Of a stretch of 64,000 nt of DNA, positions 33,681 through 41,725 are shown piece after piece. The notes beneath the pieces are model-generated. The model was not told the origin of the DNA. It saw nothing but the letters and a program-made list of their open reading frames with translations, and ran no database searches. Origin of the DNA: Streptomyces sp. PCS3-D2 (lineage in GTDB: Bacteria > Actinomycetota > Actinomycetes > Streptomycetales > Streptomycetaceae); NCBI RefSeq assembly GCF_000612545.2, contig NZ_CP097800.1, positions 1,054,001-1,118,000 on the forward strand. Direction: 5' to 3'. A program made the translations under genes and the position numbers. Each line of letters opens with the position of its first letter. The first letter of the stretch is position 1.

Positions 33681-33725
33681 TGGTCGGGACGACAGGATTT
33701 GAACCTGCGACCCCTTGACCCCCAG
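33681..33725 (-). repeat. Left attachment site, tRNA-Pro 3' remnant
   Basis: 45 bases identical to 41681-41725, running from the CCA end of tRNA-Pro to the first base of the anticodon loop, then diverging at once. It lacks the 5' half and so cannot give a tRNA. Confidence 0.92.
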
Positions 33726-34015
33726 ATGTACAGGTGACCCGGATTATCCGGACATACCACACTTATCTGGGGCGCAGACCGTGTACAGAGCGGTGCTTCG
33801 TGCACCACCGCTTCCATCGTATGGTCCCCAACTGGTCCCCAAGGCCATCGAGCTGACGTCGAGGTACGCGAGCTGTTCGTGGTCACTGCCAGTCGGGCGG
33901 GCGCATACCCATAGGACGCAGTTCTAGGGAGTGCCGTGCTTTGTCAAATCCCGCCGGTGTCAGGGGAGGCGTCGTCTAGCGTCTGGCCTGTCGCAAACGG
34001 ATGGAGGCAGTGCTG
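33726..34015. other. Element left end, no supported gene
   Basis: About 290 bases between the attachment remnant and the effector gene. Contains the direct repeat tggtccccaa at 33822-33831 and 33833-33842, which could be arm-type integrase sites. The effector gene's Shine-Dalgarno (GGAGG) is at its right end. No reliable promoter could be picked. Confidence 0.45.
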
Positions 34016-35230
34016 ATGAGCGGGAGCGGCGGGAAACGGAGTCGTCTTTCATCCAAGACGGTTCTCGCCGTGTGGGTGCGCAGTGGAGGCAGGTGCATGC
34101 TGTGCAACGCGTACCTACTGGAGGGGGCGATGTCGGGACGGACGCTTCCTTTGGGGGAGGTTGCGCACATCGTCGGGCAGAGCACTGATCCGCGCTCGCC
34201 ACGCGGCGGGGATCTGCTGGAGGGGGCGTTGCGGGATGAGGCGGACAATCTGATGCTGCTGTGTGCCCAGCAGCATATGGAGATCGATGCGAAGGCCGCG
34301 CTGGACGTCTTCACCGTCGAGTGGCTGCGCCGTGTGAAGCAGGAACATGAGGACCGTGTCAGGCACCTGACCGCGCTGGGGCCGGAGAGGGCCACCACGG
34401 TGGTGCGGATGGTGGGGTCAGTGCACGGAAATGCGGTCGAGCTGTCGCGGGAGACCGCTGCGGACGCTGTGACGGCAGGCCGCCGCTTTCCTTTGTACCT
34501 GGAGTCCTACACCCGGCACGGTGTGGAGATAGACCTGCGGCACACTCCCGGCGAGCAGGCAGCCGCGGCCTGGGACGCGGAATCAGCCGCCGAGGCCAGC
34601 CGTCACTACTACCGGCACGCGACCAAGGTCATCGATGACGTGGTCCGCAACCGGCTGCGGCCAGGGATAGAGCGGGAATCCGTGCAGCACGTGAGCGTGT
34701 TCGGATTCGCGCGTCTGCCATTGCTGGTCTATCTCGGGTCGCTTTTGGACGACACCGTGCCGACAGACATCTACCAACGTCACCGGCACGAGCAGTCATG
34801 GGTGTGGCCGGCCGAGAGCGGCCCGCTCACCAAGTTCGCCGCGCATCCCGTTCAGGCCGGTTCGGGCCGGGACGAGGCTGTCGTCGTGGTGAACGTCTCC
34901 GGGATCATCGCCCCTTATGAGGTTCCGCGGGAGCTGTCGGCGCTGCGCCGCTACGAGGTCCGCCCGGTGGGCGCGCAGGCCGGTCCGGACATACTGCGCT
35001 GCCGGGCGTCACTGCAGCAGCTTGAGGAAACGCTGCGGATGCTTCTCGCGCGGCTGGAACGGGAGGCGAAGTCGCTGCGCCGCCTACATGTCCTGCCTGC
35101 CGTTCCCCTCGCCGCGGCTGTCGCCCTGGGCCGTACCCACCATCCGCAGGTGCACCCGCAGCTCGTGATCTACGAGCGCCTGGCGGGCAGCTACGTGCCC
35201 ACCTTAGAGGTGGGGCAGGTCCCCGGCTGA
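34016..35230 (+). CDS. cap5: CBASS effector, HNH endonuclease-SAVED (Cap5-like)
   Basis: 404 residues. N-terminal HNH nuclease: C27xxC30 (GRCMLCNAYL), His51 in GEVAHIVGQS followed by DPRSPRG, and N78-C83-H87 in NLMLLCAQQHMEID. From about residue 175 the sequence fits a SAVED cyclic-nucleotide sensor: VSVFGFARLPLLVYLGSLL, then SWVWPAESGP, and the closing LHVLPAVPLAAAVALGRTHH with QLVIYER. Cap5 proteins multimerise on binding a cyclic di- or trinucleotide and degrade DNA, killing the infected cell. ATG at 34016 chosen for GGAGGCAG upstream; an in-frame ATG at 34001 exists. It points towards, not with, the CD-NTase/cap2 genes, which is unusual for CBASS. Confidence 0.9.
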   Translation: MSGSGGKRSRLSSKTVLAVWVRSGGRCMLCNAYLLEGAMSGRTLPLGEVAHIVGQSTDPRSPRGGDLLEGALRDEADNLMLLCAQQHMEIDAKAALDVFTVEWLRRVKQEHEDRVRHLTALGPERATTVVRMVGSVHGNAVELSRETAADAVTAGRRFPLYLESYTRHGVEIDLRHTPGEQAAAAWDAESAAEASRHYYRHATKVIDDVVRNRLRPGIERESVQHVSVFGFARLPLLVYLGSLLDDTVPTDIYQRHRHEQSWVWPAESGPLTKFAAHPVQAGSGRDEAVVVVNVSGIIAPYEVPRELSALRRYEVRPVGAQAGPDILRCRASLQQLEETLRMLLARLEREAKSLRRLHVLPAVPLAAAVALGRTHHPQVHPQLVIYERLAGSYVPTLEVGQVPG

Positions 35231-35431
35231 CCCGCGCACGGCGGCGGCCCGCCGTGTGGCGCCGTGGAGCGCCTTCTCATCCTGGCTTGGAGGTGTGGAG
35301 CTGCGGCAGGGTGTGCGGAGTTCTGCCGGAGCGACTGGGGGTGCGGCCTGTTACCGACGCCCGGCAACCTCAGGGGCTCACGGCCTTGCCGGGCATGCAG
35401 GGCCGCCGGTCCAGCAACGCAGGAAGGCTCC

Positions 35432-40251: not shown

Positions 40252-41652
40252 ATGCGTACCAGCGCCGGCCGCGGCCGGATCTACCGCCGCTGCGGCTGCA
40301 GAGACCCCCAGCACCACCAGCTCGGCACCCACTGCCCCCACCTGACCACCGACAGCCAGCACGGCACCTGGAACTTCGCCGTCGACGTCCCCACCCCCGA
40401 CCACCACCGCACCACCATCCGCCGCGGCGGATTCCGGAGCCAGGACGCCGCCGAGCAGGCCCTGGGCCGGTTCCTCGAGGGCGAGGCAGGCGGATACAAC
40501 GCCGACCCCAGCCAGACCGTCGCCGCCTACCTTCACTCCTGGCTGGAGGCCAAGGCCCTGGTGCTGAAGCCGATCACGATGGCCCGCTACCGCGACTACG
40601 TCCGCAACGACCTCGTCCCGGCCTTCGGCAGTCTCAAGCTCGACCAGCTCGCGCACCGGCACATCTCCGCCTTCGTCACCTGCCAGCTCGCTGCCGGACG
40701 CGGCAGAACCACCCTCTACCGCTGCCTGGCCACCCTCTCCAGCGCCCTCGGCGACGCCGTCCGCCAACACCGCCTCCCCCACAACCCCGCATCTCCCCCA
40801 GCCCTGCGTCGCCCACCGGCACCAGAGCGGAAGATCTGGACAGCCGAAAAAGCGGCGCGGTTCCTGGCCTACTGCCACCAGGCCGACCCGGAGATAGCCG
40901 ACCTGTTCGAGTTCCTGATCGGGACCGGCATGCGCAAGGGCGAAGCCCTCGGACTGCACTGGGACGACGTCCTCCTGGGCGAGGGCGTCCTCTACGTGCG
41001 CTGCACTCTCTCCGCCATCGACAACAACCGTCTCGTCATCACCACGCCGAAGACCCGGTCGAGCCGCGGCTGGATCGCCATCTCACCGCGCGTCGCCACC
41101 GCCCTGCGGCACCACGCGCGATCAACGCCGCCTACGAGGGGCGATCCTGACGATCCGTTCGCAGGGCTCGTGTTCTGCCGACCCGATGGGCGTCCGCTCG
41201 GACCGCACCAGGTACTCGACCGGCTCCACCAGCTGTCCGAAGAGGCCGGCGTCCCGCGGATCACGGTCCACGACCTGCGTCACCTGGCGGCCACGATCAC
41301 GATCTCCGCCGGTGTGCCGCTGACAGTGGTGTCCAAGACGCTGCGGCACTCCACCCTGTCGACGACCGCGAACATCTACAGCCACCTCACCCGGCAGGCA
41401 GCCCGCGAAGCCGTCGACACCATCGACCGCACCCTCACCGGAGCCCAGAACACCGGCCGCGAAACGAGCCGCCCGGCGTGGCTGCGACCACCACGCGACC
41501 ACCTGCAGCAGATCCGCGAAACCTTCCGCAGGCTCCGATCCCCCGCACCGCTGGCCTTCAGTGCGACGGCCGACCGGCCAAAGGCTGGACGTGCGACCAC
41601 ATTGCGACCACCATGGCCCCGGACGCACGAAAGGCCGCCCTCTCATGGTTGA
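40252..41652 (+). CDS. int: Site-specific tyrosine recombinase (integrase)
   Basis: 466 residues. The N-terminal arm domain is cysteine-containing (IYRRCGCRDPQHHQLGTHCP), followed by a SAM-like core-binding domain (VAAYLHSWLEAKALVLKPIT) and a catalytic domain with the full active site: Arg228 (GTGMRKGEALGL), Lys267 (TPKTRSSRGW), His340 and Arg343 (VHDLRHLAATI), His366 (LRHSTLST) and Tyr376 (ANIYSHLT). Intact and close to the usual length of actinobacterial integrases. GGAGGCGATCCCC precedes the ATG. It ends 29 bases from the attachment repeat in tRNA-Pro, so it should catalyse integration and excision of this element. Confidence 0.95.
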   Translation: MRTSAGRGRIYRRCGCRDPQHHQLGTHCPHLTTDSQHGTWNFAVDVPTPDHHRTTIRRGGFRSQDAAEQALGRFLEGEAGGYNADPSQTVAAYLHSWLEAKALVLKPITMARYRDYVRNDLVPAFGSLKLDQLAHRHISAFVTCQLAAGRGRTTLYRCLATLSSALGDAVRQHRLPHNPASPPALRRPPAPERKIWTAEKAARFLAYCHQADPEIADLFEFLIGTGMRKGEALGLHWDDVLLGEGVLYVRCTLSAIDNNRLVITTPKTRSSRGWIAISPRVATALRHHARSTPPTRGDPDDPFAGLVFCRPDGRPLGPHQVLDRLHQLSEEAGVPRITVHDLRHLAATITISAGVPLTVVSKTLRHSTLSTTANIYSHLTRQAAREAVDTIDRTLTGAQNTGRETSRPAWLRPPRDHLQQIRETFRRLRSPAPLAFSATADRPKAGRATTLRPPWPRTHERPPSHG

Positions 41653-41663
41653 GAGAACGGCCT
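41632..41663. terminator. Element-borne terminator for tRNA-Pro
   Basis: Hairpin with outer arms aggccg/cggcct and inner arms ctctca/tgagag around tggt, followed on the minus strand by a short T run. It overlaps the integrase stop codon. It replaces the ancestral terminator that was displaced to 33632-33663 by the insertion. Confidence 0.7.
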
Positions 41664-41680
41664 CCGACCTGCGTAAACGC

Positions 41681-41725
41681 TGGTCGGGACGACAGGATTT
41701 GAACCTGCGACCCCTTGACCCCCAG
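41681..41725 (-). repeat. Right attachment site within tRNA-Pro
   Basis: Exact 45-base copy of the repeat at 33681-33725, spanning CCA end to anticodon loop of the intact tRNA gene. Strand exchange must have occurred somewhere within it. Confidence 0.92.

What the first reader, a model, noticed from the sequence alone, without database searches (positions are those of the whole stretch)
33681..41725. Compact 8-kb CBASS defence island integrated at tRNA-Pro(GGG)
A tyrosine integrase and a complete CBASS system (CD-NTase, Cap2-like, Cap5-like effector, CapH/CapP-like regulators) lie between exact 45-bp repeats of the tRNA 3' half. Almost nothing else is carried: no replication, transfer or excision gene is recognisable. 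This looks like a minimal anti-phage cassette that moves by integrase alone, possibly parasitic on a conjugative element or phage.
Basis: partly seen in the sequence, partly recalled or inferred. Interest (0 to 1): 0.9.

Follow-up and report, generated by a model that had tools for sequence, protein, structure and literature searches.

The report
Integrase-only island carrying CBASS phage defence
A Streptomyces chromosome carries an 8-kb piece of DNA, apparently inserted at a proline tRNA gene by its own integrase, whose load is a complete but ordinary CBASS anti-phage system; relatives use the same kind of integrase at the same tRNA to carry quite different genes.

Summary
Confirmed. An intact tyrosine integrase and a five-gene type II CBASS (HNH-SAVED Cap5, E2-E1 Cap2, CD-NTase, CapP, CapH; no Cap3) lie between exact 45-bp copies of the tRNA-Pro(GGG) 3' part. 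No transfer, replication or excisionase gene was recognised.

The integrase family occurs in 20 of 393 sampled Streptomyces genomes; 26 of 27 matches lie beside a tRNA-Pro 3'-end copy. Sixteen delimited sister islands (4.7-17 kb) carry unrelated cargo with few defence matches; this CBASS was found in none of 52 loci. The vehicle is thus a general-cargo, integrase-only island. The CBASS module (86-91% DNA identity) sits without this integrase in four other genomes.

New: paired TGGTCSC repeats, candidate integrase arm sites, occur four times in the window, all inside the island. The left flank is the scar of a second integrase family; in three relatives checked that family's end lies directly against a whole tRNA-Pro, the arrangement expected before this island entered. 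A second tRNA-Pro(GGG) of the genome looks unoccupied.

Integrase-only defence islands are described in E. coli (Hochhauser 2023) and accretion at tRNA genes in Streptomyces (Choufa 2022), so this is a new member of a known kind. Whether and how it moves is untested.

The parts
33501..33584 (+). scar outside the island: last 27 codons and stop of a second tyrosine-integrase family (type B)
   Evidence: tblastn 81% over 26 aa, E 2e-6, with the integrase beside tRNA-Pro in G025; DNA 77% over 33483-33676
33681..33725 (.). left attachment repeat (tRNA-Pro 3' fragment)
   Evidence: 45/45 identical to the right copy
33726..33858 (.). left end of island backbone
   Evidence: 86% over 133 nt to the left end of the Streptomyces sp. 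ISL-87 island, which has different cargo
33822..33839 (+). paired arm-type repeat, left end (TGGTCCCCAACTGGTCCC)
   Evidence: role inferred
34001..35230 (+). Cap5: HNH nuclease-SAVED effector
   Evidence: PADLOC E 4e-149, Pfam SAVED, PDB 7rwk E 2e-39
35432..37168 (-). Cap2: E2-E1 ubiquitin-like conjugation enzyme
   Evidence: PADLOC E1-E2 E 2e-237; Pfam ThiF and Prok-E2_A; PDB Cap2 7to3 only E 2e-6, E1 part
37165..38169 (-). CD-NTase (SMODS), C-terminus ...RTGRAG, overlaps cap2 start
   Evidence: PADLOC cyclase E 1e-157; Pfam SMODS E 1e-30
38813..39385 (-). CapP-like M78 metallopeptidase with an HELGH motif (start of translation could be 39331)
   Evidence: PADLOC capP E 5e-33, Pfam Peptidase_M78
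39318..39635 (-). CapH-like HTH regulator
   Evidence: Pfam HTH_31 E 2e-10; PADLOC capH E 2e-6
40068..40251 (.). right backbone, noncoding: conserved integrase promoter region (strongest 40133-40251); may reach left to about 39799
40188..40204 (+). paired arm-type repeat in the integrase promoter
   Evidence: role inferred
40252..41652 (+). tyrosine integrase (466 aa); R228, K267, H340, R343, H366, Y376 present
   Evidence: Pfam PF00589 E 7e-23; alignment of 12 relatives; role of the residues recalled
41484..41501 (-). paired arm-type repeat in the integrase 3' end
   Evidence: role inferred
41593..41610 (-). paired arm-type repeat, right end
   Evidence: a pair at 25 of the 33 right ends listed
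41681..41757 (-). intact tRNA-Pro(GGG); 41681-41725 is the right attachment repeat

Best explanation
An integrase-only genomic island (33681-41725) inserted by site-specific recombination into the anticodon-to-3' part of tRNA-Pro(GGG); the right copy restores the tRNA. The integrase is inferred to bind core sites in the 45-bp repeat and paired 11-bp arm sites near both ends, and perhaps at its own promoter, where it could regulate itself. The cargo is a type II CBASS without Cap3. The inferred working: CapP senses DNA damage and cleaves the repressor CapH; the CD-NTase, primed by Cap2 conjugation through its C-terminus, makes a cyclic nucleotide; the SAVED domain of Cap5 binds it and the HNH domain degrades DNA, aborting infection. 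Shown here: anatomy, repeats, the integrase-tRNA link across relatives, exchangeable cargo, the gene set. Inferred: recombination activity, arm-site function, defence activity, and spread with the help of other elements or by general chromosomal transfer.
For: Exact repeats and intact tRNA. Family matches with very low E-values. Integrase relatives in 20 of 393 Streptomyces genomes at E<=1e-80, own genome included; 26 of the 27 matches (two are pieces of one gene) lie within 1.5 kb of a tRNA-Pro 3'-end copy (up to 10 mismatches in 45), against 0 of the own genome's 4 other integrase-like matches. ISL-87 shares both ends (left 86%, integrase 87%) but not the middle. In G019, G005 and G025 the type B end is joined directly to a whole tRNA-Pro, as expected without the island. 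Arm motif 4 times in the window, all in the island, 0.03 expected. Catalytic residues intact. CBASS module conserved as a unit elsewhere.
Against: No conspecific empty-site strain could be compared; among the listed matches of 120 relatives (capped list) none spans the joined flanks into the coding DNA on both sides. No circle junction seen. Only 8 of 27 integrase matches cover at least 440 of 466 residues in one piece without a stop, so the family often decays in place. The left arm motif is not general: of 29 tRNA-Pro fragments in the loci at hand 7 have it exactly, 2 with one and 1 with two mismatches, 19 not. The motif is no commoner in the whole genome than its reversed control (8 against 16); only its clustering here is unusual.
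Confidence: 0.86

Rival explanations
1. An immobile relic: the island entered long ago, perhaps inside a larger element, and is now fixed; the integrase cannot excise it without an excisionase that is absent.
For: No Xis gene recognised; 19 of 27 integrase matches are shorter than 440 residues or broken; the left flank is a decayed element.
Against: The window's integrase is full length with the catalytic residues and the repeats are 45/45 identical.
Confidence: 0.3
2. A composite: the left end belongs to a type B element and the right end to a type A element, joined by deletion between tandem elements, so the 8-kb unit never moved as such.
For: The left arm has the TGGTCCCC variant also seen at the right ends of three type B elements; the type B scar lies just outside; tandem islands are common; most tRNA-Pro fragments (19 of 29) lack the left-arm motif.
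Against: ISL-87 has the same left end and the same integrase family with different cargo; 9 of 29 fragments have the motif with at most one mismatch.
Confidence: 0.18
3. A phage satellite or mobilisable element that uses a helper for transfer.
For: Small, integrase-only; the host has an FtsK_SpoIIIE-domain gene about 5 kb from an integrase at 3.838-3.844 Mb (reading it as a TraB is inference). Hochhauser 2023 raises a satellite reading for integrase-only islands.
Against: No packaging, relaxase or helper-hijacking gene among the six; no plasmid (26 records matched) or phage record (1015 matched) reaches 60% identity to the integrase, and no viral contig encodes a close relative.
Confidence: 0.15

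Closest known systems
Integrase-only defence islands of E. coli (Hochhauser et al. 2023, PMC10121019; passages seen)
   Same: Integrase plus defence genes at an integration hotspot, no other mobility gene, unclear way of moving
   Different: Streptomyces, tRNA-Pro(GGG), an integrase family whose sister islands mostly carry cargo without a defence match
AICEs and their accretion at tRNA genes in Streptomyces (Choufa et al. 2022, PMC9513070; passages seen)
   Same: Tyrosine integrase at a tRNA gene, direct repeats, tandem elements at one site
   Different: No traB or rep recognised
Type II CBASS (B. cereus system, PMC11153139; passages seen)
   Same: CD-NTase, Cap2, nuclease-SAVED effector
   Different: No Cap3; Cap5 convergent to the operon; CapH/CapP-like regulators

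Membership tests
CBASS (type II) | CD-NTase | tested here: met
   PADLOC E 1e-157; Pfam SMODS E 1e-30
CBASS (type II) | Cap2 with E1 and E2 domains | tested here: met
   PADLOC E1-E2 E 2e-237; ThiF and Prok-E2_A
CBASS (type II) | Cap3 (JAB) peptidase | tested here: not met
   No further gene called in the island; only the six proteins were searched. I do not treat it as defining: by the passages of PMC11153139 Cap3 was not required in a V. cholerae and a P. aeruginosa system and its loss only weakened the B. cereus one, but it was essential against T4 and T6 in an E. coli system. Filed as a Cap3-less variant.
CBASS (type II) | Cyclic-nucleotide-responsive effector | tested here: met
   HNH-SAVED, PADLOC E 4e-149, by sequence only
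CBASS (type II) | Protects against phage | not testable with these tools
   -
CapH/CapP regulation | HTH repressor plus M78 peptidase next to the operon | tested here: met
   (capH match weak, E 2e-6); ssDNA-triggered cleavage is from passages of PMC13373217, not tested here
Integrase-only mobile island | Integrase, tRNA target, direct repeats, no other mobility gene | tested here: met
Integrase-only mobile island | Presence/absence polymorphism within a species | not tested
   one genome per species held; 120 relatives searched with joined flanks
AICE | TraB and Rep besides the integrase | tested here: not met
   none among the six genes
Phage satellite | Packaging or helper-hijacking genes | tested here: not met
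   none recognised among the six genes; no dedicated satellite search was run

The most novel reading that the evidence does not exclude
The tRNA-Pro integrase family defines a distinct class of minimal actinobacterial mobile unit: a left arm, a fixed promoter-integrase-right-arm block, and a freely exchanged middle, excised by integrase alone and spread by chromosomal conjugation. Its cargo slot, not its mobility genes, is what evolves, and CBASS is one of many loads.
Probability: 0.3. Interest if true: 0.62.

Novelty: new member of a known kind. Interest (0 to 1): 0.42.

Why it matters
It is a small, apparently intact integrase-only defence island in a genus for which the listings of my paper searches showed none (the top 9 to 20 papers of each were seen). 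Sister islands help to bound the backbone and suggest the arm sites. That makes the open question of how integrase-only islands move directly testable with a short integrase block and a reporter cargo.

Tried and rejected
The left flank 13681-33680 matches only 2 of the 52 loci at E<=1e-20: 195 nt in L112 (the type B end) and 197 nt in L087 inside an ABC-transporter gene. Rfam in 33400-42000: the tRNA, plus one hit far under its gathering score. A conserved Xis beside the integrase: rejected, since the conserved upstream stretch has non-triplet gaps (by eye). Phage or plasmid carriage of the integrase: 26 plasmid and 1015 phage records match, all under 60% identity; no relative in viral contigs. 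Repeats bounding the CBASS module of G155: no att-like pair. A cargo/backbone junction at 40119-40133 was dropped, because G017 and several islands share sequence left of it; it lies somewhere between about 39770 and 40070. Structure prediction was not used.

The 13 fragments had been picked partly because they showed the motif; over all 29 tRNA-Pro fragments in the loci at hand it is 7 exact, 2 with one mismatch, 1 with two, 19 without. The odds of the composite rival were raised from 0.15 to 0.18 for that.

Left out of counts: the gene caller (onward) is home-made and missed capH in the window and called cap5 short. Of 105 genes called in 16 sister islands, two over 1100 aa and 13 integrase or integrase-region frames were left out, so 90 were scanned. 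At most 25 families are shown per scan: 25 of 97; 20 of 20, 19 of 19 and 25 of 26; 25 of 29. The 11 proteins of the G042 island were scanned only. In some searches four loci were left out as duplicates, and the output was cut. The 33 right ends were listed by hand; L014, L016, L021, L022, L097 and L098 are not among them.
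Full report
OBSERVATION. The two 45-bp copies are identical and 8000 bp apart; the right one is the 3' part of an intact tRNA-Pro(GGG) on the minus strand and reaches from the anticodon loop to an encoded CCA end. Inside lie six genes: Cap5 (HNH-SAVED), Cap2 (E2-E1), a CD-NTase, CapP (M78 peptidase with HELGH), CapH (HTH) and a tyrosine integrase that points at the tRNA. No transfer, replication or excisionase gene was recognised. GC content is lower inside (about 0.65-0.70 against 0.70-0.78).

THE VEHICLE. At E<=1e-80 the integrase has relatives in 20 of 393 Streptomyces genomes, the own genome among them (27 matches, two of them pieces of one gene in G054), and 17 named loci were fetched (at least three are the same places as unnamed hits). 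Of the 27 matches 26 have a copy of the 45-mer (up to 10 mismatches) within 1.5 kb, of the 17 named loci 15 do within the stretch held, and of the own genome's 4 other integrase-like matches (3 genes) none does. Each tRNA-Pro that ARAGORN reports in these loci has anticodon GGG. G173, G038, G165, ISL-94 and AP-93 hold two or three such units in tandem. Only 8 of the 27 matches cover 440 or more of the 466 residues in one piece without a stop.

SISTER ISLANDS. Sixteen could be delimited by two att copies (4.7-17.2 kb); in that of G042 only a stub of the integrase is left. tblastn of the five CBASS proteins at E<=1e-8 against 52 loci (17 named, 35 fetched, a few overlapping, not all covering a whole island, some without this integrase) found none. 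Cargo is varied: halogenase, P450, dehydrogenases, PIN-domain proteins, a CHAT protein, an amino-acid permease, very large proteins. PADLOC at E<=1e-10 matched 19 families among 90 cargo proteins, each in a single member (RmrA, TPR, mad2, capP and others). No conjugation, replication or virion family is among the families shown (72 families, one and four were not shown).

BACKBONE. ISL-87 shares the window's left end (33726-33858, 86%) and the integrase (87%) but has different cargo. The conserved block before the integrase is noncoding by eye: gaps that are not multiples of three, an inverted repeat and a TGGTCGC pair. The pattern TGGTCSC-N3-5-TGGTCSC occurs four times in 64 kb, all in the island (33822, 40188, 41484, 41593), against 0.03 expected in shuffles. 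In the whole genome there are 8 matches, 4 of them here; read backwards the pattern gives 16, so it is the clustering that signals. A right-end pair is present at 25 of 33 right ends that I listed, a single copy at 5 and none at 3. At the left end the motif is exact next to 7 of 29 tRNA-Pro fragments, off by one at 2 and by two at 1, and absent at 19; not all of these fragments are left ends of this family's islands. That the repeats are integrase arm sites is inference from place and spacing. The integrase keeps R228, K267, H340, R343, H366 and Y376 (their role is recalled).

THE CARGO. The CD-NTase has relatives at E<=1e-60 in 14 of 393 Streptomyces genomes, own genome included; in four others it is 93-95% identical. 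Around those four the DNA matches the window at 86-91%, from about 33922 where the contig reaches that far to 39697-39900, with no match to this integrase; two of the four contigs end inside cap2. In G017 the match resumes at 39992-40119 (81%), which overlaps the island backbone, so CBASS next to this backbone may have existed in a second species. No Cap3 was seen. Cap5 faces the operon, as in 8 of the 10 relatives in which a Cap5 was seen. The mechanism (CapP-CapH release on DNA damage, Cap2 priming of the cyclase, cutting of DNA by the HNH-SAVED effector) follows from the named families (PMC11153139 and PMC13373217, passages seen; Cap5 action recalled) and was not tested.

THE SITE. The left flank 33501-33584 encodes the end of a different integrase (81% over 26 residues to the integrase beside tRNA-Pro in G025, E 2e-6; that integrase is 23% identical to the island's own), so an older element of another family preceded this island. 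That second family has a match at E<=1e-80 in 10 of 100 relatives, the own genome not among the ten. In G019, G005 and G025 its right end is joined directly to a whole tRNA-Pro, the arrangement expected here before the CBASS island entered; 7 listed genomes show such a joined stretch. The own genome has a second tRNA-Pro(GGG) at C1:1140547-1140621 with a native-type hairpin flank, no other att copy in the 20 kb fetched and no match to either integrase nearby. The right flank (DUF309 by my reading, glyoxalase and further genes) is conserved across many of the 52 loci, the left is not.

STANDING. In E. coli, integrase-only islands with defence genes and unclear mobility have been described, with a satellite reading offered (PMC10121019, passages seen). 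In Streptomyces, accretion at tRNA genes is described for AICEs (PMC9513070, passages seen). The listings of my searches (top 9 to 20 of 9 to 5545 papers each) show no paper on this integrase family or on a CBASS island at tRNA-Pro; most subscription papers are not held. The finding is sound and tidy but of a known kind; its value is as a test system.

Noticed in passing
window 33501-33680: C-terminal end, arm-like motif and hairpin of a second integrase family (type B), left of the island: an accretion scar.
   Followed up: yes
G000:C1:1140547-1140621 (L152:15548-15622): Second tRNA-Pro(GGG) gene of the same genome, apparently unoccupied; its core lacks the encoded CCA seen at both island repeats.
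   Followed up: partly
window 33822-33839 and L112:18378: The island's left end carries the same TGGTCCCC motif variant as the right end of type B elements, although the two integrases are only 23% identical; unexplained.
   Followed up: partly
L128 (G017): The same CBASS joined to a fragment of this island's backbone on a short contig, next to what look by eye like remains of another integrase.
   Followed up: partly
G000:C1:3837942-3844064: FtsK_SpoIIIE-domain gene and a tyrosine integrase within about 6 kb: candidate AICE, possible helper.
   Followed up: no
L081, L082, L083, L092: Tandem arrays of this integrase family's islands at tRNA-Pro, the inner integrases mostly in pieces.
   Followed up: partly
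L089:7079-13435 and L091:7889-14566: Proteins of over 2000 aa as cargo of two sister islands, whose cargo also includes transposase-like fragments.
   Followed up: no
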